Shown here piece by piece: positions 9,801-29,767 of a DNA stretch of 64,000 bases. Within the stretch, counting starts at the first letter, position 1. Every line of letters starts with the position of its first letter. This stretch comes from Scheffersomyces stipitis CBS 6054 (lineage: Eukaryota; Ascomycota; Pichiomycetes; Serinales; Debaryomycetaceae), in the NCBI RefSeq assembly GCF_000209165.1, contig NC_009043.1:186001-250000 (forward strand), written 5' to 3'. Both the position numbers and the translations under genes were made by a program. A model generated the notes under the pieces. That model did not search any database. It had not been told where the DNA came from and saw only the letters and a program-made list of their open reading frames with translations.

Positions 9801-9805
9801 CAATT

Positions 9806-10228
9806 TGTTTGGATCTCGATACTGTATATTGAATCCTTAAGTCTTTTAGGCTTAATATTTAAGCTGGCTACGTCGAAGTTGTTTCTACTGAAATCCCTTG
9901 CATTAACAGCTTGCTATGAAAGCTCAGATTTGACTCACTTCCTAGGAGGCTTCTAGGTTCCTTAGGAAATTCTGTTAGCTAAATATATAGACAAATTCTC
10001 GAGGCGAGAATGTGAAAAATTTTCACGAGATTCCAACTGCCCAAAATGGGATCAACTTGGTCGGGAAATGTACATCTAGACCCATACCAAGTAGGACCAA
10101 CCATCGCAGTTACATCATATGGCTAAGCCTTCAACTTCGTTAAACATTCTTGAAGTTGATGGAATATAATGTAGGATCAATGTCGTACCACAGCGACATT
10201 ATACGACATTTAGATTGAATTTCCAACA
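9806..10228 (-). repeat. 3' LTR of the retrotransposon
   Basis: 423 bases beginning TG and ending CA on the plus strand. On the element strand it starts TGTTGGAA, the common start of yeast copia LTRs. It matches the other LTR base for base as far as I can compare by eye. A 9-bp perfect inverted repeat, AATGTCGTA (10179-10187) and TACGACATT (10202-10210), lies near its start on the element strand. Confidence 0.97.
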
Positions 10229-10236
10229 CTCCCCTA
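10229..10236 (-). other. Polypurine tract (plus-strand primer) overlapping the pol stop codon
   Basis: On the element strand the sequence TAGGGGAG lies directly against the TGTTGG start of the 3' LTR. It is the expected position and composition for the RNase H-resistant primer of second-strand synthesis. Its first three bases are the pol stop codon (10234-10236), so coding and priming signals overlap. Confidence 0.8.
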
Positions 10237-13200
10237 AAGCTCTGATAGGTTCTCTTCTAGAGCTTTCTTCTGGAATTTTTTATTATGGATACTTTTGATT
10301 TGGACTTGTCTCTTCGTAGTTCTCAAGTCACGATTGTACATGTTTTCGTGTGTCACTATGTCGGCATCAGGCATGTTAAATAGATATTTCCGTAGTCGAT
10401 CGAAATCGGGGAAAGTGAGAGCTTTAGTAAATATGTCTGCAACATTTTCTTTGGTTTGAATGTAATAGACATGGTATCTGTTGTGATGGATTCCGTCTCG
10501 AATGTATTTGATCTTGATGTCAGGATGACGTTTGGTATGAGATAAGTCATTGTAACAGTTTGCGATTACGGCCTGATTATCTTGAAGTAACATAACTTCT
10601 CCAACATCAAAGGTAAGACTCTTTATCCGAGTAGTTATCTTCTCGGTTAGCTTTGCAGCCGCTTGCAATGAAACTGTTTCACAATCTCTTGTACTGTCAG
10701 TTATTAAACTCTGTTTCTTAGCAGACCAGTCTACCAAATTTCCATTGACGTACAATGCGATCCCAGTTATCAGTTTTCTATCCTTGTCTGGAGCAAATGA
10801 TGCATCCGAATAGGTTCGTATCGAGAACTTATCATTCACATCAGGTATTCTGCCTTTTCTATATTCCAAAGGCATGTGCGTATTACTTCTCAAGTATCTT
10901 AACACATAGTACATATTGTTGTAATCATCCACGTCTGGGTTATGGGATTTTGAACCAAGGACACTCACTGCGTATGATATGTCCGGCCTTGTGTTGTTGC
11001 TAGCCCACAACAATTGTCCAACGGCACTTTGATAGAGTTTCTTTGTTTTCTCATTAAGTAATTCGGCCTCTGGTTCCTCATGCATCCCGTCGACGATTTT
11101 AGTATTCTCCAAGTACGATTTTTTCCTTACCATAGGAGTTCTCTTGGGTTGGTCGTCCATGATATTGCATTTGTTTAGAAGATCTTCTAAGAACTTAGTT
11201 TGATATAATGAGTATCCTCCTTCAATTCTTTTAAATTCGATACCCAAGAACTCAGTGACTTCCCCAAAATATTTGAGGTCGAACTCCTGTCTTAATTCTA
11301 GCTTAAATTCTTGCAACATCAGTTCCTTGGATGCGACCATGAATAGATCGTCAACATATAATGCTATTATGATTATTCCTTCTTTATTCCGTTTGTAAAA
11401 TACACTTTCTGTAGTCGATTCTGCGAATGACAAACTTTCTAGTGTTCGTTTTATTGTTTCGTGCCAGTGAAACCCCAGTTGCTTTAGACCATATAAAGCT
11501 TTATTGAGCTTCCAGCAATGGCCATCTTTAGCTTCGTATCCCGGGGGAGGTTTCACATAAATATTCTCGGCAAGTGTAGCGTTTAAATAAGCAGCTTCAA
11601 TGTCAAGATGATGCATCTCCATACTTAATTCTGTCGCAATGGCTGCCAATAATCTGATGGTTGTTAGATCCACAACTGGAGACGATACCTTTGTGCAATC
11701 GAAATCGATACTGTCCTTCTGTCTATATCCTTGAGCTACACATCGTGATTTGTATTGCGCATTTTTCAAATCATTCTGCTTGAAGGTGTGTACCCATCTG
11801 GTTGGAATAGGCTTTCTTCCTTTGGGTATTTTGACAACAGTGTAGACATTGTTTTTCTCAAACTTCGATATTTCGTTGTCCATTGATTTTATCCAGTCTG
11901 AATTCTTGTAATCAATTTTATTGATAATTGCGTTTAAATATCTTTTCGGAGGTCTTGACATTCTGCCTGATTTTAATTGAATGACATACTGGGGATCTAT
12001 CTCCTCAGTGGCGCCGGTCGCCTCAGTAGTCGCTTCTACTTCCTCTTCAATTTCACGTTTAGATTTCAGAAAATCTGGGTGTACTTTACGCCTTTTGTTA
12101 GGCTTATTTTTGTTGGTAGGGGAATTCGCTGATATAACACGATTAGGTATGGTGTTATACGCGCGTCTGTCGTTTGTGATCTCACCCCTGTCGACATGTT
12201 GGGGTTTAACGAGATCATTGTTCGACTCAGGGATGTTGGGGATCTCCTCTGCAACATATGGGTCTGGCAACACAGTAGCTGCGGAGGCATTCGCGTTCTC
12301 GGCTTGGCTTTCTTCTGCTTGCTTGTTTATGTCTGTAGAACTTGTAGAGGGTGTCTCTTTATTGTGGTTGTCTACATGCTTAGTACGAGGGGAATGCTTG
12401 AGCCCGTCTAAGTCTTTATCTGACACAGGACTAGTGGAGGCGTACGTGTCACTATTCTCATCACTATCGTCGTGCGTTTGCTTATTGGTGAGCTCCTTAT
12501 CACTCAATGAGTCTTGCGGCGTATGTTGGTCAGTGGAGTACCCGACATATTCATCGCCTCTGTCCAATCGTTGGACGTCCGTAGCAGTTGTACTAGTTTG
12601 TGCTACGTGCTTGGAAGAGGTACCTTTTTCTCTGTCCAAGACTTTGTGGGTGTCAGGTTCGGTAGGTGAACTGTCTACACTGGAAATACCTGTATGCTTA
12701 GTGTAAGGGGAATTCATGTCCTTATTTAAGTCTCTGAAGTGATCGTTAGGCGAAGGGAAATGTGCGTCCTTGTCTAATTCACTTGTATCTTTCGCGGGAT
12801 TAGGGGGATGGATTGCCCTTGTGCCCGAGGCGGTAGTGGTGTCCGCGTGTTCTTTGACAGATTGGGACACCTGAGTTATGTTAGTGACTTCGGTCCCTGC
12901 AATCAGTTCTTTCGATGTTGATGATTGTGGGAGCTCAGTGTCCTCAATGGTCTTTGTTCCACTATAATCTTGCTCGTTGTTGATGTTTTTGTCTATCTCA
13001 GAATAGTTGTCACTATCTTCTTCCATATTTTCCGTTGCACTATTATAGTCTGCACTGTCATTTCCCCAGTAGTCCATGCTTTCCAGGTCAGTGTCTGTAA
13101 GTGCTTCATCTGCTCCCCTGATTGGCTGAATTGCGGTGCCCTGTAATTCAGTCAATTTACTTTGAATCTCTTTTGCTATGTCTGGATGTTTGGACTGCAA

Positions 13201-14826
13201 GTATTCGATCTGGGATTGAGGATCAGAGATGTCAGGAATGTCTTGATCAACATCACTTGTCCCAGTGTTTAGGAAATGGTCGAGATCAGTCGAGTCTAGA
13301 ATTTCTTCCGTTTGGGGTATGGTAAGTGGGTTTTCCGAAAGACATGCGTTTATGTAGGTTTTAAGGTAGCTATGACCGTTAACGAATCGTGCGTTAGCAG
13401 TGTTTACTTCGTGATAGTCCGGTGATTGTATGAGAATCTTATATGTGTTATGATCAGTACCATATCCGATGAAGGATCCGTAAACTGTGCTAGGGTATTC
13501 CTTCAGTGGGGATATCCGGTATCTTGCCAATTGCAAATCATTCTCTACTTTCACGTGTACGTCTTGACCGAAAGGCTTATAATTAAATTGTCTTTGAGTT
13601 CGCTCAAATACTTCCCGTGGTGACTGACCTTCTAATCCTACTTTGGGGGTGTTATTCAAGACGGCTGTAATATAGTTTACCATTTGAGGTAATAGAACTA
13701 ATATTGATGAGCCAATATCTGGAAATTGTAATGTTAATTTCTTAATCTGATTTATGATAGTTCGGTTCTGCCTTTCTGCCGTGCCGTTGATAGCTGGTAG
13801 GTAAGCCGGGGTAACATCTTTTTCTATACCGAGTTTAGATAGCATATTTGCACTTGGAAATTCAGGGGCATTGTCAGTTCTAAGGTGACCGATTCTCTCC
13901 CCTGGAAATTTGTTGTTGAGCAATTGTAATTCAGTATATATCCTTGTGGTAACAGCTTTAGTGTCTGTCACTATTGTTCTAAGGTACTTCGAGTAACCAT
14001 CTGTGATCGAAGTTATATATTGTTTCTTTCCACCAAAGTGAAACGGACCCATCATGTCAAGATGTAATCGTTCAAGTCGGCGAATAGGTGTGGGTCCATC
14101 ATTATTGTGTGATGCTGCTATGGTGTTAACGCTGAGACATATCTGGCAATTTGTAATTCGTTCGACATCGTTCCTCGTTGGTTTTGCCTTTATCCTACCA
14201 TTTTGATAAAGTGCCATCATGCTCTTTAGAGCCATGTGGTTAGAACCAATGTGAAAGTTCCAAAATGATGATTGTTTGTTTACATCGAATTGTGGTGGGT
14301 CGATATTGTGAATCGTTTGAACTTGACTCAACAACTGGGTACCGGTGTAGTTGTCGGTCGGTTTTAGATCAATTTTGCCCATGTATACATTGTCAGCATT
14401 AAGCATGCCAGCGATGATTTCTATTTTTCCATTCTTCTGTCCGATATATGCATATTTGTCATCGAATCGACAGTAGAAGTCGGTATGCTTAGAGATCTGA
14501 GATACGCTAATGATGTTGTGCGGAAGTTCTTTAATGACTCTGACGTCTTTAAGTGTTATGCCAAAGTCACCGTCAGATAATGTTAATGTGCCCATGTGTG
14601 TTGCTATAATGATGCTTGAGTCCGGTAATTCAAATCTGCTTTCTTCTTCTGTCAAATTTTCAGTTACATTCGTTAGTAATCGAGCGTCATTTACAATGGA
14701 CCATGATGCACCAGAGTCGTATAAGATGTCTCCCGCTTTTGTGCCAGATACGATTTTGTTTAATCGTTGTATATTTAATGGTATATTGTCTCTACGTTCT
14801 GGTCCGTTAGAGACTAGACCTTGACC
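10234..14826 (-). CDS. Retrotransposon Pol: protease, integrase, reverse transcriptase, RNase H (read through from gag)
   Basis: 1530 codons follow the gag UAA in the same frame with no other stop. There is no early ATG of its own; the frame runs straight on from gag. Domains in order (codon 1 is just after the UAA): aspartic protease with Y-DSGAS (Asp37); integrase zinc site with HIGSNH and CQIC, then the catalytic D, D, E in LHLDMMGP, RTDNAPE and NGTAERQ; a long Ser/Thr/Asp/Glu-rich linker of several hundred residues; reverse transcriptase with LDIEAAYLNA and the catalytic YVDD; RNase H with TYSDASFA, ETVSL and LLQDNQAV. All catalytic residues are present. A CTG codon at 11476-11478 lies where copia elements have the Ser of GLKQS, indicating CTG=Ser. 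The stop overlaps the polypurine tract. Confidence 0.95.
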   Translation of the reverse strand, partial: GQGLVSNGPERRDNIPLNIQRLNKIVSGTKAGDILYDSGASWSIVNDARLLTNVTENLTEEESRFELPDSSIIIATHMGTLTLSDGDFGITLKDVRVIKELPHNIISVSQISKHTDFYCRFDDKYAYIGQKNGKIEIIAGMLNADNVYMGKIDLKPTDNYTGTQLLSQVQTIHNIDPPQFDVNKQSSFWNFHIGSNHMALKSMMALYQNGRIKAKPTRNDVERITNCQICLSVNTIAASHNNDGPTPIRRLERLHLDMMGPFHFGGKKQYITSITDGYSKYLRTIVTDTKAVTTRIYTELQLLNNKFPGERIGHLRTDNAPEFPSANMLSKLGIEKDVTPAYLPAINGTAERQNRTIINQIKKLTLQFPDIGSSILVLLPQMVNYITAVLNNTPKVGLEGQSPREVFERTQRQFNYKPFGQDVHVKVENDLQLARYRISPLKEYPSTVYGSFIGYGTDHNTYKILIQSPDYHEVNTANARFVNGHSYLKTYINACLSENPLTIPQTEEILDSTDLDHFLNTGTSDVDQDIPDISDPQSQIEYLQSKHPDIAKEIQSKLTELQGTAIQPIRGADEALTDTDLESMDYWGNDSADYNSATENMEEDSDNYSEIDKNINNEQDYSGTKTIEDTELPQSSTSKELIAGTEVTNITQVSQSVKEHADTTTASGTRAIHPPNPAKDTSELDKDAHFPSPNDHFRDLNKDMNSPYTKHTGISSVDSSPTEPDTHKVLDREKGTSSKHVAQTSTTATDVQRLDRGDEYVGYSTDQHTPQDSLSDKELTNKQTHDDSDENSDTYASTSPVSDKDLDGLKHSPRTKHVDNHNKETPSTSSTDINKQAEESQAENANASAATVLPDPYVAEEIPNIPESNNDLVKPQHVDRGEITNDRRAYNTIPNRVISANSPTNKNKPNKRRKVHPDFLKSKREIEEEVEATTEATGATEEIDPQYVIQLKSGRMSRPPKRYLNAIINKIDYKNSDWIKSMDNEISKFEKNNVYTVVKIPKGRKPIPTRWVHTFKQNDLKNAQYKSRCVAQGYRQKDSIDFDCTKVSSPVVDLTTIRLLAAIATELSMEMHHLDIEAAYLNATLAENIYVKPPPGYEAKDGHCWKLNKALYGLKQLGFHWHETIKRTLESLSFAESTTESVFYKRNKEGIIIIALYVDDLFMVASKELMLQEFKLELRQEFDLKYFGEVTEFLGIEFKRIEGGYSLYQTKFLEDLLNKCNIMDDQPKRTPMVRKKSYLENTKIVDGMHEEPEAELLNEKTKKLYQSAVGQLLWASNNTRPDISYAVSVLGSKSHNPDVDDYNNMYYVLRYLRSNTHMPLEYRKGRIPDVNDKFSIRTYSDASFAPDKDRKLITGIALYVNGNLVDWSAKKQSLITDSTRDCETVSLQAAAKLTEKITTRIKSLTFDVGEVMLLQDNQAVIANCYNDLSHTKRHPDIKIKYIRDGIHHNRYHVYYIQTKENVADIFTKALTFPDFDRLRKYLFNMPDADIVTHENMYNRDLRTTKRQVQIKSIHNKKFQKKALEENLSEL
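14788..14820 (-). promoter_or_regulatory. H-type pseudoknot downstream of the gag UAA (predicted readthrough signal)
   Basis: On the element RNA, six bases after UAA, stem 1 GGUCU (14820-14816) pairs with GGACC (14805-14801), the last pair being U-G. Stem 2 GUCUCU (14814-14809) pairs perfectly with AGAGAC (14793-14788). The loops are 1, 3 and 7 bases, which suits a coaxially stacked H-type pseudoknot. Stop-codon readthrough with a pseudoknot just downstream is established for murine leukaemia virus and was proposed for Candida Tca2. Function here is inferred from the structure. Confidence 0.8.
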
Positions 14827-15900
14827 TTATTGTCCGTGGCGTTTGGCACCGGAGGTTTTGCTCTTGAATCCCAGCTTATTACCATCGTGTGATTCACCTG
14901 TGGTGTGGGATTTTGCAAAGTTTCCTCTATTTCCATTGGATTTGGTCTTTTCTCTCTCTTGGGCGTTTTTAATCCTTTCGCTTATCAAGCTTTCGATTGT
15001 TCTTTTGTCCAGAGAGTCTGGTGGCTCGTAGTCGTGATGATTTCTCATGCGCTGAATAACGTCATCAATTGTTGGTGTTTTACCATCCTTTTTGTGTTCC
15101 TGAAAGAACCAAGCAAGAGATTTATAAAACATGTTGCGTGTTTCAACTTCGTTTAGGTACCTATCAAATACAATGATGTAATATAGTTTCATCTTGCACA
15201 AGAAATCTAGGATTTCTTCGTTGGTGCCTTCAACCCATTGTTTTATGTGCAGAAGGCCATCGACAGCTCTGTCGGTATCCGTTCTAAAATCTCCAGTGTA
15301 CCTAAGGTAAGTCAATACCTGTCCAATTCTATGTGGAAGGTTCTCCATCTTGTAAGTCTTTACAAAGATGTACATAGTCTTTAAATCTGTTTCGTAATTC
15401 ACTTCATCTATCTCAGAGAATGCCTTTTCATTAATATCAATTATTCTGGATATCAATTCATCGGACAATCTGTGTATGAATGTTTCCAATTCCTTCCCAC
15501 GCCATGGGATGTTCTTAATATTGAAGTCTTTAGAATCATGTCCTAAGTCTTCATCCCATATTTTCTGTAAGCCACCGTATCTTCGGAAGAGTTTTAAGAA
15601 GGCTTTTTCCCATTTGGTAATAGCGTCAATATTTCTCGCAAGCGGAACAATTCCTTTGAAGGCTGTTGCTGCTAGCTCTGAATCTTTCTTCGCATCCTTC
15701 CTTATTTCTTCATTCCGATCCTCCAGTTTGTTTATCTGGGGTGGAGGTACGCCAGAGGAGCTTTGAGCTTTCATAGCTTCCATCAACGCGTCATACTTGG
15801 CGCTTTGAACCAATAGCTCTTGCTTGAACTCATCTTTGAGTTTCTGCAATTGCTTCCCAACTTCGCTGTTAGGGTCGATAAAGTTATCTTCTTTAGCCAT
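14827..15900 (-). CDS. Retrotransposon Gag (capsid protein)
   Basis: 357 residues from ATG 15900 to UAA 14827-14829. The N-terminus is a charged coiled-coil-like region (EVGKQLQKLKDEFKQELL), followed by a helical capsid-like core with several Trp residues (ITKWEKAFLKLFRRYGGLQKIW) and a basic, Lys/Arg/Gly/His-rich tail. It has no CCHC zinc knuckle, so nucleic-acid binding probably relies on the basic tail, as in Ty1. The AUG is only 29 bases after the primer binding site, so the leader past the LTR is very short. It is translated alone, or with Pol when the UAA is read through. Confidence 0.9.
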   Translation of the reverse strand: MAKEDNFIDPNSEVGKQLQKLKDEFKQELLVQSAKYDALMEAMKAQSSSGVPPPQINKLEDRNEEIRKDAKKDSELAATAFKGIVPLARNIDAITKWEKAFLKLFRRYGGLQKIWDEDLGHDSKDFNIKNIPWRGKELETFIHRLSDELISRIIDINEKAFSEIDEVNYETDLKTMYIFVKTYKMENLPHRIGQVLTYLRYTGDFRTDTDRAVDGLLHIKQWVEGTNEEILDFLCKMKLYYIIVFDRYLNEVETRNMFYKSLAWFFQEHKKDGKTPTIDDVIQRMRNHHDYEPPDSLDKRTIESLISERIKNAQEREKTKSNGNRGNFAKSHTTGESHDGNKLGFKSKTSGAKRHGQ

Positions 15901-15928
15901 TTTTAACTTAAGATTCTAACGCGAATTT

Positions 15929-15940
15929 TGACTTCTAATC
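15929..15940 (-). other. Primer binding site matching the anticodon arm of tRNA-Arg(UCU)
   Basis: The plus strand just outside the 5' LTR reads TGACTTCTAATC. This equals the anticodon stem-loop of yeast tRNA-Arg(UCU) (anticodon TCT within it), so the element RNA is complementary to an internal tRNA fragment rather than to a tRNA 3' end. Candida Tca2-type elements are known to use this internal fragment, generated by cleavage in the anticodon arm. The match to the host's own tRNA could not be tested because that gene is not in the window. Confidence 0.8.
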
Positions 15941-16363
15941 TGTTTGGATCTCGATACTGTATATTGAATCCTTAAGTCTTTTAGGCTTAATATTTAAGCT
16001 GGCTACGTCGAAGTTGTTTCTACTGAAATCCCTTGCATTAACAGCTTGCTATGAAAGCTCAGATTTGACTCACTTCCTAGGAGGCTTCTAGGTTCCTTAG
16101 GAAATTCTGTTAGCTAAATATATAGACAAATTCTCGAGGCGAGAATGTGAAAAATTTTCACGAGATTCCAACTGCCCAAAATGGGATCAACTTGGTCGGG
16201 AAATGTACATCTAGACCCATACCAAGTAGGACCAACCATCGCAGTTACATCATATGGCTAAGCCTTCAACTTCGTTAAACATTCTTGAAGTTGATGGAAT
16301 ATAATGTAGGATCAATGTCGTACCACAGCGACATTATACGACATTTAGATTGAATTTCCAACA
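15941..16363 (-). repeat. 5' LTR of the retrotransposon (promoter LTR)
   Basis: 423 bases, offset exactly 6135 from the other copy and identical to it by eye. As the 5' LTR of a minus-strand element it carries the active promoter. It lies 123 bases from the ATG of the divergent gene on its right. The same 9-bp inverted repeat occurs at 16314-16322 and 16337-16345. Confidence 0.97.
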
Positions 16364-16368
16364 CAATT

Positions 16369-16486
16369 GCTGCATTAGTCACGTGATTACTCTCACCATA
16401 TCAAGCAATGGTTTATACATTTTTCAGATCTTATCAACATCTTCTCATTGAGGTATCCATACTTATCTTGTACATATAATTGCATC
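16369..16486 (+). promoter_or_regulatory. Short promoter of the acidic-protein gene, with CACGTG site
   Basis: Only about 120 bases of native sequence remain between the LTR target duplication and the ATG. They hold GTCACGTGATTA (CACGTG core at 16380-16385) and a TATA-like stretch near 16410. CACGTG is the Cbf1/bHLH core. The same 12-base block occurs upstream of SSL2 at 29422-29433. Confidence 0.55.
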
Positions 16487-19400
16487 ATGGGGAACAGCAA
16501 TTTCCCATCGCCTTTCAAGGTGAAATCCGGTTCCAATTCCAAGGAGGAAAAAGCCACTCCTAGAGCCAATTATAGCACTACGTTCAACAGTAGCCATCTT
16601 TATAGCAACTCCAGAGTGATCCTGAAACTGGCTGGCATCGGCAATAAAAGTATTGATGTTGGTGCCGAAAGCAGTTCGAATGATATACTAGACTGGATCA
16701 CTGATGTTGATACTCGATTCAAGCACTTGATGCGACAGCAGAAATTAGAGCTGCAATTGTTGAATGTTCAAGACCAACAAGATCAATTGAGATTGAAGTA
16801 CAAAAATAAAATTTTTGACGATACTTTTGAAAAGTTGGGAGCAATACTTGAAAAGCAGCATAGTGAATCGGATCAAGAAGAACATGAAATAGAAAGAGTG
16901 AAAAAGAGAATTGAAAAAGAAGAAACAGAGGATTATGATGATCAATATGAGGAAGCAGAAGATGATGATGAAGAGGAAAATGAAGAAGATGGAGTAGAAG
17001 ATGGAGAAGGTGATCTCATAGAAATTTTATCATCAGAGCAGGAAGAAGAAGTATCTGAAGATGAGTCTGAATCTGAAGATGAAGATGAAGATGAAGAACA
17101 TCATGTTGAAAAGGAAGAAGAACCTGAGGCTCGTCCTAATATAAATCTCACATACCCAAACACACAATATACCAATAGTGGCATCCAATTGCCTTCACAG
17201 AAGACCAGCATACCATATAGTATCCATCATGGAAGACCTCGATTGTCAGATTCTTCCCTATGGTACAGTCAAGTTCGCGAAGAAAAGGATGATGATGGGC
17301 CGGAAGATGAGGACCAAGATGAAGAAGACGAAGATGAAGAAGAAGACGAAGATGAAGAAGAAGAAGAAGAAGAAGAAGAAGAAGAGGAAGACGAAGATGT
17401 AGAAGAAGATGATGATGAAGAAGAATTGAATGACGAAGAATTGAATGACGAAGAATTGAATGATGAAGATGTTGAAGAAGAGATTGAAGAAGAGATTGAA
17501 TATAGCGAGGAGGAGGGCGATCATCGTATTTTTAATAGACATCCGGAGTTGGATTCTTCCTTGCAACATACTCAAGGCAGTAGTTTTGAACAGACTCAAC
17601 GAGATCCCGAAGATGAAGATGATTCTATTATTGTTTTAGATTCTGAGTCCGATCAGGACGAAGAGGAGGAGGAAGAAGAGGTGAATGATCCACTTCGATC
17701 TTTATCTTACTCCCATGCAAATCATCAAGATCTTCATAGAAATGAAGTAGAAAAAAGTGAGGTATCTGAAGAAGAATATGCTCGCGCATATGAAGAAAAT
17801 GGAAAGGAAGACGAAGGTGAATACGAAGATGAAGACGAAGACGAACATGAAGACGAAGACGAAAATGGAAGTGAAAGTAGTAAAGACGACGAAGTTGATG
17901 ATGAAAATAGTAATGATCTGGAAATGGGTGTTAGTAATCAAGAAGGTAAGACTCAAGAAAGCCAAGAACAGGCTTTTGTGGATTTTTCTTCTGTGTATGA
18001 TCCTTCAAGTAACTTCTTTGGGCACCAAGATCTACTTCAGCTTGCTAATACTGTTTTACAGAACGCAGATTCAGAGTCCGTTTCTATTGGAAATTCCCGA
18101 ATAGATCCAGAGAATGAAACTTTTCCTTTGACTTATGAAGAACGGTCTCGTATGGCAGGTTACAATGCTGACATTGAAGCTACAGACAATAATACGGCAA
18201 CAAACGTGCCAACAAAGGATGAAGAAGAATACGATCTGAACAGCCACGTCAAAGCTGAAGATATCGCTCCCATTCCTAACTCATTTTATGCTGAAGAATT
18301 TGAAACTGCTCATGATATGAAATTGGAGGAGGCCGATGAAAACAATTCAGATGGATCTTTGGCTGATGAAGAAAGCGATGTAAACAGATTGAAACAAGAA
18401 TTGAAATTTGAACATAAAGTCCAAGAAGATGTACGTACTAAGCCGAATGGCTCTACTGAGTTAGTGAACCAAACTCTTCAACTTGAACAAAAGCATGAAC
18501 GGCAAGGAAAACAAGATTGTCAAGAAATTGAGACGGCTGTAAAATCACATTCAGAAATTGAAAGTGAGAGTCAGAGTGAAAGTGATTCAGAACTGTATGC
18601 ATCCGTTCCTTTCTTCAAGACTATAGAAGAAGAGGAACCAGAAGTAGTTTTGCAACAGCTTCGTGAAACTGAAAGAAAGTTTCACATCACTTTGAATTCA
18701 GTTGCTGATTTAGAAGAGGAATTAGGGATAAGGTCTTCTCCATTTAATTCTGCTACTCCTTCTAGAAACATATCAGTTGAACCAGTTATTTCCGAACGTG
18801 CAACAAATGAAAGTAAGTCGCGTGTAGATGAGGTGATCGTAGACGGGGACGGTGTCATAGAAGAAGAGGGTTTATGTCGGCTTGAAATTCCTAATGAGAA
18901 AACCGAGATGGAAGAGCTAGAGAAGATAGAGCGTCCAGTACTTGAAGAGCTTGCTACTGAGGAAGAAGATTATACGGAGTCTGATTCTAGATTTGAATTC
19001 CTGGGAGTTGAAGCAGTTGAAGATGGAAATGATGAAGTCGTGGCTTCGCATGAAATAGTCTCAAAAGAAGAAACATCAGCAGGAACAACAAAAGTTGAAG
19101 AAATTGAAATTGCTTTGGTGAATGAGGAATATATGGAAGAAGCGTCTAAGACGACAGCAGAGTTGGTACAATCTGGTATTGATCTGACTATTGAATTGAA
19201 AACACATTCGGTTGAAGATATCATAGAAGAAAATGAAGGATCTGTGATTGAAGATAATAGTGAATCTCACGATCAGTTTCAAAATATTGAAACAGGCTTA
19301 CCTATTGACAATCAGGTAAACTCAGCTGTTTACGAAGGGCAAGGTGTGGATAAGACATCAGAACAACAGTTGTCGTCAATTGAAGGTCAAGATCACATGG

Positions 19401-22282
19401 AAAATGAAGAGTTACCAGCAGAAAGAGAAAATATTGAAGTTCCTCATTTGGATTCACTCATTACTGACGACCAAGATCAAAGTGCAGAAGTTTCAAATTA
19501 TACAATTATAACTGAAACGCAAGATCAGATTCCTGAAGTTCCTAATTTGGATACAATTGTTAGTCAAACTCAAGACCAAAGTATTGAAGATGATAATGCT
19601 GAGTTGAATTCTACAATTTTGCCTGATGTTCTTCCTCAGATTTCAGTTGAAATGGCAGACGAAGTGAACTCTAGTGTCCCAGAAGAAGTTAATAGCATGA
19701 AAGATCTATCAGAAACAAGACTCCAGTCTAATGAGCCTATACAGACTGATGTTAAGGAGAACGTTATAAATGCTGATTCAGAAGGTGATGCTGTTCCTTT
19801 GTCAAAATCTAATGCTGATTATTCCGAAATTGAAATTCCAATTTTGGATGCTTTTGTTAGTGAAACAAATGACCAAACGGCTGATGAAATCACAATACCA
19901 GATACTTCGACAATTGACCATGAACCTGATGAACGGCCAATTCCGCCTTATCTTGATAGTATTGATGTTTCCAATAATGATATTCTGCGCGATTCTATTT
20001 CTGTGGTAGAAGATGCTAATGATACTGTTACAATCAAAATGCCATCTCTTGAGCAAATAAAAGAAGATAGCGAACTTGTCTTTGAAGAGTCGGGTATTGA
20101 ATCTACTGAATTAGGGAATACTTACACAACTGACATTCTTGAGAATCCACTTCAAGAAACAAGCATTATGCTGAATAATGATAAAAATGAAGATGTTGAA
20201 AGCATTCCCATTCAGGCTCGCTCACAAGATGGTGATGGTAATTTCGCCGAATCTGTTGTTGTTGAAGAGATTGAAGAACAGGATGAAAATATTATCACTG
20301 AGATTAACCAAAATGTATCGATTGAATTGTTCGAGGGAGAATCCATTCTTCGACCTACGGGAGTCATTGAACCTAAAGCAGAATCAGCTGACGTTGTGGA
20401 TCATATTGTCAATTTTGACCATGTTAATCATATCTTAGTCCCTGAGGAACCTGAGGAGATAGTTTCTCCTCTTTTGACTCCTGAAGAAGTGGAAGATGTC
20501 GTTCCTATTATACCAAATGAAATTATCGAACCAGAGTCGCCAGAGCCTTCAGGATTGAATATAGCAGAACAAGAAGTAGACATCGAAGTTGGCGGAGAAG
20601 ATATTGATTTTCCAACTTCCATTATCATTCCTTCTTCTAGGTCTGCGTCACCAGCAGTATCAGTTCAGTATCCAGTGGATATGAAGGTAGAAGAAATTGA
20701 TCCTAATCAAGATACCAAAGTTGAAGACCCCAAAGCCATTAATAGCGATTCACCATCAAGTAGAAAGCGAAAGCTGGAAGTGGACGGAGGTAGCTTTGCC
20801 AAGAAACTCAAGAGTAAAACTCTGATATTTTCGAAGTGGTTCAAGAGAACTGAAGTTGATGAACATGTCGAACCAGTTCAATTTGTTGTGGTACCTGTTT
20901 TAGATCCAGTTGAAGATGATGAAACTGAAGACGAAGTTGAAAATGAGAATGTAGCTGATAACTTCGAACTTAGTAAAAATCAACTAGATGAAGTCTTTGT
21001 GAAAGGAATGAATCAAATAGAAAAGGAGGCATTTGTCCAAGAAGTGGAACAATCACAATTTCAACAAAGTGAATACAAGAAGATGTCAGATTCAGAAGTT
21101 GAACTTCCCCAAGATGTAAAGGACCATTCTGAAGAACCGCTTGGATCACAGGAACTTGAGCTGGCTTTTGTTAGTCATTCCGATGTTGAGAGAGGAGAAG
21201 AAATTGAAAGGTACTCTGAAGTCGTTGTAGGTGAAGATATGAATACTGGTGATAAGGCGATTGATGAAGGACTAAGTGTTGATGAAGTGGTTGATGAAGT
21301 GGTTGATGAAGTGGTTGATGATGAAGTGGTTGAAGAAGAGGATGCAAAGGCCTCTGGTAAGACCGCTGATAGAGATATTGCTGGTATCGCTGAAAAAGCC
21401 CAACACGCTGAGAAGAATGAATCTGAAGTAGTTCACGATGACAAGGAAGATAACCAGGAGGTTTTGGTTATTCTTGATAAAGCAGTTGAACTGCATGAAT
21501 CTAATCATCCTGAACAAGGCTTCGTGAGTGAAGAGGTAGTCGCTGCAGCTGTTGGTTACCTGGATGAAAAGCAAGAACCAGAAAAGACAGAACCAGAAAA
21601 AACAGATCATTCTCAGGCACCTGATGCTGCAATTGGTGTTCAAGAAACTCGTCTTGAATCTACTGGCGAAGATAAAAGTGGTGCTATTTTGGAAGAGAAG
21701 AAGTTAGATGTAAAGAAGAGAAGGAGTTCCTCTGGAGCAAAATCAAGAAAGAAGAAAATCCTTGGTTTGGATGTCGAGGAATTCCCAGCCCTTGAACTAG
21801 AGCCTCGGTCTTTGCGTAATGGACATAAGTTTGGTGACGAAGAGTCTACTGCAGCTTCTCATTCGCCAAGAAAGCCATCAAGAAGCTCAATAAAGCCTCT
21901 GAATGTTATTCTGCCTGAGTTGGTGCAAGAAGAATTTCCTAGATTAGAGGTTCCTAAAAGAAAAGGTAGATCAAAAGTTGATCAGAAAGTGGAACACGAA
22001 GAACCAGACGAGATTGATAAGCATTCATCACCAAGAAAGACTTCGTGGAAAGAAGATCATCTGACAGATCATCCAGCTCTAAGAACGAGATCGAAATCAC
22101 CAATGAAGAGAACTTTGCGAGAGATCTCATCCGAGTTGGAACAAGAACTTCCTCGCAAGAGAAGAAGTGCCAGAGTCAAGAATCAGCAGGAAAAGACTGC
22201 TGCAGACATCGCTGATCGTCCTGAGGACAACGATAAGGAAGAAGAATTGGCCAATCGTGGAAGAACAAGAAGGAGAAAGTGA
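16487..22282 (+). CDS. Very large acidic repeat-containing protein, function unknown (possibly nuclear)
   Basis: 1931 residues from the first ATG (MGNSNFPSPFKVK); the frame is also open upstream but without an ATG. The N-terminal 130 residues look folded (LDWITDVDTRFKHLMRQQKLELQ, coiled coil). Then come long Glu/Asp tracts, three copies of ELNDE at about 17424-17467, and VVDEVVDE repeats at 21288-21330. A degenerate repeat P-x-LD-x-x-V/I...DQ occurs at 19437, 19541 and 19835. A basic patch around residues 1423-1445 (SSRKRKLEVDGG, then KKLKSK) and a Lys/Arg-rich C-terminus look like nuclear localisation signals. Two copies of EEFPxLE lie near the C-terminus. I do not recognise the family. Acidic nuclear-periphery or chromatin proteins such as Esc1 are similar in size and composition, but I see no specific homology. 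Confidence 0.85.
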   Translation: MGNSNFPSPFKVKSGSNSKEEKATPRANYSTTFNSSHLYSNSRVILKLAGIGNKSIDVGAESSSNDILDWITDVDTRFKHLMRQQKLELQLLNVQDQQDQLRLKYKNKIFDDTFEKLGAILEKQHSESDQEEHEIERVKKRIEKEETEDYDDQYEEAEDDDEEENEEDGVEDGEGDLIEILSSEQEEEVSEDESESEDEDEDEEHHVEKEEEPEARPNINLTYPNTQYTNSGIQLPSQKTSIPYSIHHGRPRLSDSSLWYSQVREEKDDDGPEDEDQDEEDEDEEEDEDEEEEEEEEEEEEDEDVEEDDDEEELNDEELNDEELNDEDVEEEIEEEIEYSEEEGDHRIFNRHPELDSSLQHTQGSSFEQTQRDPEDEDDSIIVLDSESDQDEEEEEEEVNDPLRSLSYSHANHQDLHRNEVEKSEVSEEEYARAYEENGKEDEGEYEDEDEDEHEDEDENGSESSKDDEVDDENSNDLEMGVSNQEGKTQESQEQAFVDFSSVYDPSSNFFGHQDLLQLANTVLQNADSESVSIGNSRIDPENETFPLTYEERSRMAGYNADIEATDNNTATNVPTKDEEEYDLNSHVKAEDIAPIPNSFYAEEFETAHDMKLEEADENNSDGSLADEESDVNRLKQELKFEHKVQEDVRTKPNGSTELVNQTLQLEQKHERQGKQDCQEIETAVKSHSEIESESQSESDSELYASVPFFKTIEEEEPEVVLQQLRETERKFHITLNSVADLEEELGIRSSPFNSATPSRNISVEPVISERATNESKSRVDEVIVDGDGVIEEEGLCRLEIPNEKTEMEELEKIERPVLEELATEEEDYTESDSRFEFLGVEAVEDGNDEVVASHEIVSKEETSAGTTKVEEIEIALVNEEYMEEASKTTAELVQSGIDLTIELKTHSVEDIIEENEGSVIEDNSESHDQFQNIETGLPIDNQVNSAVYEGQGVDKTSEQQLSSIEGQDHMENEELPAERENIEVPHLDSLITDDQDQSAEVSNYTIITETQDQIPEVPNLDTIVSQTQDQSIEDDNAELNSTILPDVLPQISVEMADEVNSSVPEEVNSMKDLSETRLQSNEPIQTDVKENVINADSEGDAVPLSKSNADYSEIEIPILDAFVSETNDQTADEITIPDTSTIDHEPDERPIPPYLDSIDVSNNDILRDSISVVEDANDTVTIKMPSLEQIKEDSELVFEESGIESTELGNTYTTDILENPLQETSIMLNNDKNEDVESIPIQARSQDGDGNFAESVVVEEIEEQDENIITEINQNVSIELFEGESILRPTGVIEPKAESADVVDHIVNFDHVNHILVPEEPEEIVSPLLTPEEVEDVVPIIPNEIIEPESPEPSGLNIAEQEVDIEVGGEDIDFPTSIIIPSSRSASPAVSVQYPVDMKVEEIDPNQDTKVEDPKAINSDSPSSRKRKLEVDGGSFAKKLKSKTLIFSKWFKRTEVDEHVEPVQFVVVPVLDPVEDDETEDEVENENVADNFELSKNQLDEVFVKGMNQIEKEAFVQEVEQSQFQQSEYKKMSDSEVELPQDVKDHSEEPLGSQELELAFVSHSDVERGEEIERYSEVVVGEDMNTGDKAIDEGLSVDEVVDEVVDEVVDDEVVEEEDAKASGKTADRDIAGIAEKAQHAEKNESEVVHDDKEDNQEVLVILDKAVELHESNHPEQGFVSEEVVAAAVGYLDEKQEPEKTEPEKTDHSQAPDAAIGVQETRLESTGEDKSGAILEEKKLDVKKRRSSSGAKSRKKKILGLDVEEFPALELEPRSLRNGHKFGDEESTAASHSPRKPSRSSIKPLNVILPELVQEEFPRLEVPKRKGRSKVDQKVEHEEPDEIDKHSSPRKTSWKEDHLTDHPALRTRSKSPMKRTLREISSELEQELPRKRRSARVKNQQEKTAADIADRPEDNDKEEELANRGRTRRRK

Positions 22283-29675: not shown

Positions 29676-29767
29676 GGCAGTGTGGCCGAGTGGTTAAGGC
29701 GACTGACTCGAATTATTCGGGTTATCAGTTGGGATTTCCCGCGCAGGTTCGAATCCTGCTGCTGTCG
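29676..29767 (+). tRNA. tRNA-Ser(CGA) with an 11-base intron
   Basis: The acceptor stem is GGCAGTG/TGCTGTC with three G-U pairs. The D arm GCCGAGTGGTTAAGGC contains the A box. The anticodon stem is ACTGA/TCAGT, with loop CTCGAA plus A and anticodon CGA at 29709-29711. The intron is 29713-29723, in the standard place one base after the anticodon, and its TTCGGG can pair with the anticodon loop. A long variable arm (GGG/CCC) and discriminator G mark a serine tRNA. The T arm GCAGG-TTCGAAT-CCTGC holds the B box. A run of T residues just after the gene (from 29771) is a Pol III terminator. S. cerevisiae SUP61, also tRNA-Ser(CGA), has an intron at the same place. Confidence 0.95.

What the first reader, a model, noticed from the sequence alone, without database searches (positions are those of the whole stretch)
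14788..14829. UAA stop between gag and pol followed by an H-type pseudoknot: predicted programmed readthrough at UAA
Gag and Pol share one frame with only a UAA (14829-14827) between them and no second stop across 1530 pol codons. Six bases downstream, GGUCU/GGACC and perfect 6-bp GUCUCU/AGAGAC stems interleave with loops of 1, 3 and 7 bases, a textbook H-type pseudoknot. Readthrough with a downstream pseudoknot is established for murine leukaemia virus (UAG) and proposed for Candida Tca2 (UGA). UAA is normally the tightest stop, so an intact element depending on it is unusual.
Basis: partly seen in the sequence, partly recalled or inferred. Interest (0 to 1): 0.85.

Follow-up and report, generated by a model that had tools for sequence, protein, structure and literature searches.

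The report
Yeast retrotransposon with mid-message UAA stop
A recently inserted yeast retrotransposon carries a UAA stop between its shell gene and its enzyme gene, followed by a predicted RNA knot; related element families in this genome share the arrangement, so their ribosomes probably pass this usually tight stop at a low rate, which remains to be tested.

Summary
Observation confirmed. The window holds an intact, recently inserted Ty1/copia element (9806-16363, minus strand; identical 423-nt LTRs, 5-bp target duplication) of Scheffersomyces stipitis. Gag and Pol share one frame, separated only by UAA (14829-14827). The H-type pseudoknot can form at the stated place: 0 of 591 other sampled positions and 9 of 600 synonymous shuffles score as well.

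Beyond the finding: 18 of 18 junctions found in this genome, from three families (II and III each 28% identical to I), have a same-frame UAA and GGU 7-9 nt after it. In each, the first Pol AUG lies after the protease motif; codons before that AUG evolve as protein in the two families testable. So Pol must be reached from upstream. A diverged copy (78% nt identity) keeps the 11 pseudoknot pairs, two only as G.U. Family III has a moderate knot, family II none convincing.

A stop bypass is well supported; pseudoknot-driven readthrough is likely but unproven. The closest known case, Candida Tca2 (UGA plus pseudoknot), showed no readthrough when its junction was tested in baker's yeast. Splicing and a suppressor tRNA found little or no support in limited searches. 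New variant of a known kind.

The parts
9806..16363 (-). Whole Ty1/copia-type LTR retrotransposon (family I)
   Evidence: identical LTRs, TG...CA ends and 5-bp target duplication; RVT_2 over cut-off
15941..16363 (-). 5' LTR, 423 nt
   Evidence: identical to the 3' LTR over the compared 424 nt
9806..10228 (-). 3' LTR, 423 nt
9801..9805 (.). target-site duplication CAATT, left
16364..16368 (.). target-site duplication CAATT, right
14827..15900 (-). gag, 357 codons plus UAA (Gag by position; no Pfam family over cut-off)
   Evidence: homologous copies
14827..14829 (-). UAA stop between gag and pol
   Evidence: UAA in 18 of 18 junctions
10234..14826 (-). pol, 1530 codons in the gag frame (protease-like barrel, integrase, reverse transcriptase)
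   Evidence: Pol_BBD and RVT_2 over Pfam cut-off, rve below it
14821..14826 (-). 6-nt spacer GGUCAA
14816..14820 (-). stem 1, 5' arm GGUCU; its GGU is present at this offset in 18 of 18 junctions
14801..14805 (-). stem 1, 3' arm GGACC
14809..14814 (-). stem 2, 5' arm GUCUCU
14788..14793 (-). stem 2, 3' arm AGAGAC
   Evidence: the 11 pairs of both stems kept in the diverged copy
14707..14718 (-). protease active-site motif DSGA, pol codons 37-40
   Evidence: motif meaning recalled
14593..14595 (-). first AUG of the pol frame, codon 78, after the protease motif
11128..11853 (-). reverse transcriptase domain (RVT_2)
   Evidence: (C3:197128-197853)

Best explanation
This is an active-looking Ty1/copia element that works like Tca2. 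Most ribosomes end at the UAA and make Gag; a small share decode UAA with an ordinary near-cognate tRNA and continue in frame to make Gag-Pol, which sets the Gag to Pol ratio. Folded RNA that begins 6 nt after the stop, in this family most likely the predicted H-type pseudoknot, delays or blocks termination and raises readthrough. Shown here by sequence: same frame, UAA kept in 18 of 18 junctions of three families, no AUG before the protease motif, protein-level selection between UAA and the first AUG (two families), and an unusually good knot in this copy. Inferred: that readthrough occurs, its rate, the tRNA used and the role of the knot.
For: 18 of 18 junctions UAA in frame, in three families. 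First AUG at codon 78, 85 or 182, while the DSG motif is at codon 37, 27 or 30 (27 counted by eye from its output). Family I codons 1-77: dN/dS 0.158, 0 of 5000 neutral simulations with as few amino-acid changes; codons 1-36: 0.205, 24 of 5000; family II codons 1-84: 0.211, 2 of 5000. Knot score of the window copy: 0 of 591 own sampled positions and 9 of 600 synonymous shuffles as good; 20 of 2500 random positions. Diverged copy keeps 11 of 11 pairs; 83 of 2254 matched random placements do. Few synonymous changes just after the stop in family I (2 of 16 against 199 of 543, Fisher 0.036). Identical LTRs and a target duplication mark recent transposition. Tca2 Pol is made from gag-pol RNA and needs a stop bypass (PMC2194720, discussion).
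Against: The Tca2 junction (300 nt, pseudoknot included) read through at 0.3%, no more than an ordinary stop, in S. cerevisiae. Family II has no significant knot: 35 of 571, 33 of 568 and 50 of 571 own positions and 176, 100 and 250 of 600 synonymous shuffles as good for L009, L011 and L015; 288, 288 and 370 of 2500 random positions. Family III is only moderate: 4 of 570; 39 of 600; 97 of 2500. The diverged family I copy is weaker: 13 of 591; 118 of 600; 116 of 2500. Family II codons 1-26 alone do not reject neutrality (2908 of 5000 for L009, 2460 of 5000 for L011, each against L015). Synonymous depletion is not significant in family II (Fisher 0.24; combined 0.05), and windows as low occur elsewhere in pol (54 of 674 in family I, 110 of 676 in family II). 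No two-sided compensatory change. The nucleotides after UAA match no readthrough consensus that I know (recalled). UAA is the tightest stop (PMC13170385, passages).
Confidence: 0.6

Rival explanations
1. Readthrough of UAA is real, but the predicted H-type pseudoknot is incidental: an ordinary hairpin starting at the same place, or distant RNA elements, or a factor in trans does the work.
For: A nested hairpin sharing stem 2 is stable in this copy (-13.4 kcal/mol, z -2.40); family III folds a long hairpin from the same offset (z -2.18); GGU at +7 to +9 is shared by 18 of 18 junctions although the knot is not; Tca2's local junction was insufficient.
Against: The knot of this copy outscores the 591 other sampled positions of its element piece, and its 11 pairs survive in the diverged copy. 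Hairpin energies are not unusual against synonymous shuffles: as good in 70 (L006) and 225 (L008), 231, 230 and 326 (family II) and 96 (family III) of 600; z is only -1.30 for L008 and -0.47 and -0.71 for family II.
Confidence: 0.19
2. Pol is made apart from Gag, from a junction promoter, by re-initiation or from a non-AUG start, and no ribosome passes the UAA.
For: The Tca2 junction has a weak promoter (PMC2194720); another yeast element, Tyl3, has gag and pol 324 bp apart with several stops (PMC5014426, passages).
Against: An AUG start would drop the protease motif in all three families, and codons 1-36 of family I are under protein-level selection. Gag-Pol fusion is the usual route into particles (recalled). 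For Tca2, Pol followed the LTR promoter, not the junction promoter. Separate Pol would not need the same frame in three families. A non-AUG start is not excluded.
Confidence: 0.12
3. A minor spliced RNA removes the UAA and encodes Gag-Pol.
For: In the window copy one consensus branch point TACTAAC lies about 150 nt after the stop, with a CAG about 20 nt beyond it. Other copies have 5'-site-like hexamers in gag: GTACGT at -139 in L008 and -357 in L009 and L011, GTATGT at -271 in L015.
Against: That TACTAAC is not in the diverged copy, and families II and III have no branch-point match in the first 1700 nt after the stop in the loci scanned. It lies beyond the protease motif, which would be lost. 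In the window copy none of the seven 5'-site hexamers sought occurs in the last 960 nt before the stop. TACTAAC is at chance level in the window (5 found, 5.87 expected).
Confidence: 0.06
4. A dead copy in which UAA is a chance stop mutation.
For: A single stop in a transposon can be a mutation; one family III copy (L022) does have a shortened pol frame (855 codons).
Against: UAA in 18 of 18 junctions of three families; identical LTRs and intact frames in the window copy.
Confidence: 0.02

Closest known systems
Tca2 (pCal) retrotransposon of Candida albicans (PMC2194720: abstract, background, one results section and discussion read, plus passages; PMC7175516: passages)
   Same: Ty1/copia element of a Candida yeast; gag (972 bp there) and pol in one frame with one stop; predicted pseudoknot just after it
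   Different: UGA there, UAA here; 8-nt purine-rich spacer with a bulged-stem knot there, 6-nt spacer with an unbulged knot here; three families here, one of them without a convincing knot. No sequence comparison with Tca2 was made here
Murine leukaemia virus gag UAG readthrough signal (taken from the background of PMC2194720 and passages of PMC8310308)
   Same: same-frame gag and pol, stop, short spacer, pseudoknot
   Different: UAG, not UAA; readthrough of about 5% is reported there; no Rfam family matches this junction at E up to 1
Ava, Bea and Caia LTR elements of S. stipitis (PMC8546629: passages and one section read)
   Same: probably the same three families: non-centromeric LTR elements with a Lap (proposed Gag) frame and a Pol frame in this species
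   Different: the paper reports two ORFs; the words 'stop codon' occur 0 times in its main text; supplements were not readable; which name belongs to which family was not resolved here
Ty1/copia elements of diatoms (PMC2806351, passage)
   Same: described as having one or no stop codon or frameshift between gag and pol
   Different: stop identity and mechanism not seen in the passage
Drosophila headcase UAA readthrough (PMC2754532, passage)
   Same: natural readthrough of UAA
   Different: a cellular developmental gene, 20% in larval tracheal cells

Membership tests
Ty1/copia LTR retrotransposon | two LTRs with TG...CA ends and a target-site duplication | tested here: met
   423-nt identical LTRs, CAATT on both sides
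Ty1/copia LTR retrotransposon | pol order protease, integrase, RVT_2 reverse transcriptase | tested here: met
   Pol_BBD, then rve (E 9.8e-5, below its cut-off), then RVT_2 (8.3e-82)
Tca2-type in-frame-stop retrotransposon | gag and pol in one frame with a single stop between | tested here: met
   18 of 18 junctions; in families II and III the upstream frame is called gag by position only
Tca2-type in-frame-stop retrotransposon | the stop is UGA | tested here: not met
   UAA in 18 of 18
Tca2-type in-frame-stop retrotransposon | 8-nt purine-rich stretch directly after the stop | tested here: inconclusive
   6 of 8 purines in the window copy, 5 of 8 in its diverged relative, 4 of 8 in families II and III (counted by eye)
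Tca2-type in-frame-stop retrotransposon | sequence relatedness to Tca2 | not tested
   no Tca2 sequence was at hand
pseudoknot-dependent programmed readthrough (MLV type) | pseudoknot able to form just after the stop | tested here: met
   window copy; diverged family I copy and family III weaker, family II not distinguished from controls
pseudoknot-dependent programmed readthrough (MLV type) | stems conserved by compensatory change | tested here: inconclusive
   11 of 11 pairs kept in one diverged copy, two single-sided G.U changes, no two-sided one
pseudoknot-dependent programmed readthrough (MLV type) | measured readthrough lost when the knot is broken | not testable with these tools
   needs a reporter assay

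The most novel reading that the evidence does not exclude
Ty1/copia elements of this CTG-clade yeast outside the Tps5 kind share a dedicated UAA bypass that depends on a clade-specific factor (host, or the element's own Pol acting on the release factor) together with RNA folded from a fixed point 6 nt after the stop. This would explain both the shared UAA plus GGU in three families and why the Tca2 junction failed in S. cerevisiae.
Probability: 0.13. Interest if true: 0.8.

Novelty: new variant of a known kind. Interest (0 to 1): 0.52.

Why it matters
How the in-frame stop between gag and pol is passed in Tca2 was left open when its junction failed to read through in baker's yeast (PMC2194720). 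Three families in one other CTG-clade yeast, all with UAA, the stop least prone to readthrough, give a natural comparison set. They let one ask whether the knot, a fixed-position stem or a factor in trans matters.

Tried and rejected
Splicing out the stop: branch points and seven 5'-site hexamers looked for in 9 of the 18 junction loci; single candidates exist, none is conserved between diverged copies. Suppressor tRNA for UAA: a genome pattern gave 17 matches against 35 for the reversed control; I judged by eye that one (C1:626145) fits tRNA-Leu(UAA); one other (C1:1344272) is no tRNA by ARAGORN; the other 15 were only looked at as printed, and the pattern can miss genes with other T-loops or long introns. 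Rfam on 13800-16300, E up to 1: no match. Viral contigs with a Pol N-terminal piece and with an RT piece: 13 and 5 pattern matches, none confirmed. Protein database with Gag: 2 hits, both S. stipitis; with a Pol piece: 4 hits, of which only P0005 (85%) was read; it starts inside pol after the junction, so no new junction. My first two DNA alignments mixed strands and were discarded. ViennaRNA in the box had no pseudoknot routine, so a simple stacking score of my own was used. Of the 62 RVT_2 matches 18 belong to families I-III; the junctions of the other 44 were not examined, except that four loci (L060-L063) were listed for open frames. Families II and III were not compared with each other by a tool, and their gag frames were not found by the family I Gag search.
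Full report
What is there. On the minus strand the window holds one complete LTR retrotransposon, 9806-16363. Its LTRs (9806-10228 and 15941-16363) are identical, begin with TG and end with CA, and are flanked by the same five bases CAATT on both sides, so the insertion is recent. The first repeat search gave 300 nt for the LTRs; extension gave 423 nt. Gag is 357 codons, 15900-14827; it is called Gag by position, since no Pfam family passes its cut-off. The pol frame is open for 1530 codons, 14826-10234, in the gag frame. Pfam finds the protease-like barrel at pol residues 35-113, an integrase core below its cut-off, and RVT_2 at E 8.3e-82. The genome has 15.44 Mb in 8 contigs, and the Gag search names Scheffersomyces stipitis CBS 6054, with two contig lengths equal to those of contigs 2 and 4 here. 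This is a CTG(Ser1) yeast (PMC8546629), so code 12 was used.

The observation. With a simple score (stacking energies of two interleaved stems less loop costs, stem 1 starting 3-12 nt after the point tested), 20 of 2500 random window positions score as well as this junction. Of 591 other in-frame positions, sampled every 6 nt in the 3747-nt piece around the junction, none does, and 9 of 600 synonymous shuffles do. A nested hairpin that uses the same stem 2 is also stable: -13.4 kcal/mol, z -2.40, 5 of 200 shuffles as good, though 70 of 600 synonymous shuffles fold as well. The tools cannot say which fold wins.

Other copies. A DNA search of the whole genome gave four matches to the junction region. 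A search with the first 249 pol residues scored 23 candidates and gave 18 matches: four of this family (three at 100%, one at 83% amino-acid identity), eight of family II and six of family III, both at 28%; such counts are lower bounds. In all 18 the nearest in-frame stop upstream is UAA, with a frame of 362-440 codons (stop to stop) before it; in families II and III that frame is called gag by position, because the family I Gag search did not find it. All 18 have GGU as the third codon after UAA. One family III copy, L022, has a shortened pol frame of 855 codons. By position these 18 are 18 of the 62 RVT_2 matches; the junctions of the other 44, many of them in clusters and with frames of 1428 or about 1900 codons, were not examined. 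Of seven Gag matches, four have the junction, one is a lone Gag and two are fragments. Near-identical copies are not independent: the stop plus 60 nt has one form in three copies of family I, two forms in seven of family II and one in six of family III, plus one diverged copy each in families I and II. The independent evidence is thus about five lineages, and families may share UAA by descent.

Pol must be entered from upstream of its first AUG. In family I the DSGA motif is at codon 37 and the first AUG at 78; in family II DSGC is at codon 27 (counted by eye) and the first AUG at 85; in family III DSGA is at codon 30 and the first AUG at 182. Pol begun at an AUG would lack the protease active site (motif meaning recalled). 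Between the window copy and its diverged relative, codons 1-36 have dN/dS 0.205, with 24 of 5000 neutral simulations showing as few amino-acid changes, and codons 1-77 have 0.158, 0 of 5000. In family II, codons 1-84 have 0.211, 2 of 5000, but codons 1-26 alone do not reject neutrality, 2908 and 2460 of 5000 in two comparisons. Family III has too little variation to test.

Is the knot conserved? The diverged family I copy differs at 7 of the 42 nt after the stop and keeps 11 of 11 pairs, two of them by a change to G.U; among random placements of seven changes with no more than three amino-acid changes, 83 of 2254 keep all pairs, and of all 20000 placements 496 do. Its knot is weaker: 13 of 591 own positions and 118 of 600 synonymous shuffles are as good. 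Family III has a possible knot with the same 6-nt spacer and 1-nt first loop (4 of 570; 39 of 600) and a long hairpin starting at the same base. Family II has none that stands out (35 of 571 and 176 of 600 for L009; 33 of 568 and 100 of 600 for L011; 50 of 571 and 250 of 600 for L015). Synonymous change in the first 20 codons is 2 of 16 in family I (rest 199 of 543; Fisher 0.036) and 1 of 14 in family II (rest 106 of 572; 0.24), combined 0.05; equally quiet windows occur elsewhere in pol (54 of 674 and 110 of 676). I read this as moderate support for an RNA constraint in family I and open elsewhere. The invariant GGU may reflect the protein, since a glycine sits there in all families.

Mechanism. 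The best account is low-level decoding of UAA by a near-cognate tRNA, favoured by folded RNA from 6 nt downstream, to make a little Gag-Pol. Splicing is poorly supported: single candidate sites exist in some copies, none conserved between diverged copies. No suppressor tRNA was found by a limited pattern search. Separate Pol initiation is disfavoured by the AUG and selection results, not excluded for non-AUG starts.

Literature. The nearest known case is Tca2 of Candida albicans: same frame, UGA, purine-rich spacer, pseudoknot. Its 300-nt junction gave 0.3% readthrough in S. cerevisiae, no different from an ordinary stop, yet Pol is made from the gag-pol RNA in C. albicans, so a bypass must exist (PMC2194720: abstract, background, one results section, discussion and passages). 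A later review repeats this (PMC7175516, passages). The S. stipitis elements Ava, Bea and Caia are described as having two ORFs, Lap and Pol (PMC8546629, passages and one section); the words 'stop codon' do not occur in its main text. Searches for stipitis with readthrough, stop codon and retrotransposon and for CTG clade with gag, copia, stop codon and retrotransposon returned no paper; eight further searches gave listings from which I opened the papers named here and, for passages only, PMC3248453, PMC5009743 and PMC5445492; in the passages that I saw none describes this stop. The library holds only open-licence papers, supplements were not read, and the survey of recoding signals by Gao and others 2003 was not held. 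UAA is rarely used for readthrough (PMC8310308, passage) and is the tightest stop (PMC13170385, passages), but headcase of Drosophila is a natural UAA case (PMC2754532, passage).

Verdict. A bypass of UAA is well supported and, to my searches, undescribed in these elements. The pseudoknot's part is likely in this family but unproven.

Noticed in passing
P0003: A 357-residue protein 99% identical to this Gag is named 'histone H4' in NCBI and UniRef for S. stipitis CBS 6054, very likely a naming error.
   Followed up: partly
L064 (G000:C4:1743500-1750500), Gag at C4:1744349-1745320: A lone Gag relative (61% identity; P0004, annotated PICST_31809, 331 aa; frame intact) with no frame over 300 codons in the next 5 kb; a possible domesticated or copy-control Gag. 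Only open frames were listed, no domain search was made.
   Followed up: partly
L009-L016 (family II), directly at the UAA: Family II reads UAAUG: an AUG overlaps the stop in another frame and opens only 14 codons in L009 (read by eye). Termination-coupled re-initiation there would not reach pol without a frameshift.
   Followed up: no
families II and III, 6-12 and 42-49 nt after the stop (0-based, counted by eye): Both families have GGUGGUC and GACGNACC at the same two offsets, able to close a hairpin; this may be protein (Gly-Gly ... Asp-x-Pro) or RNA conservation.
   Followed up: partly
L028 and L029, G000:C2:1356050-1356354: Decayed gag fragments of this family, each with one stop inside the match.
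   Followed up: no
window 16379-22282 (+): A frame of 1967 codons (stop to stop) on the other strand begins just beyond the element's 5' LTR: the insertion may lie just upstream of a large gene.
   Followed up: no
window 29676-29767 (+): ARAGORN reports a tRNA-like gene with an unassigned anticodon.
   Followed up: no
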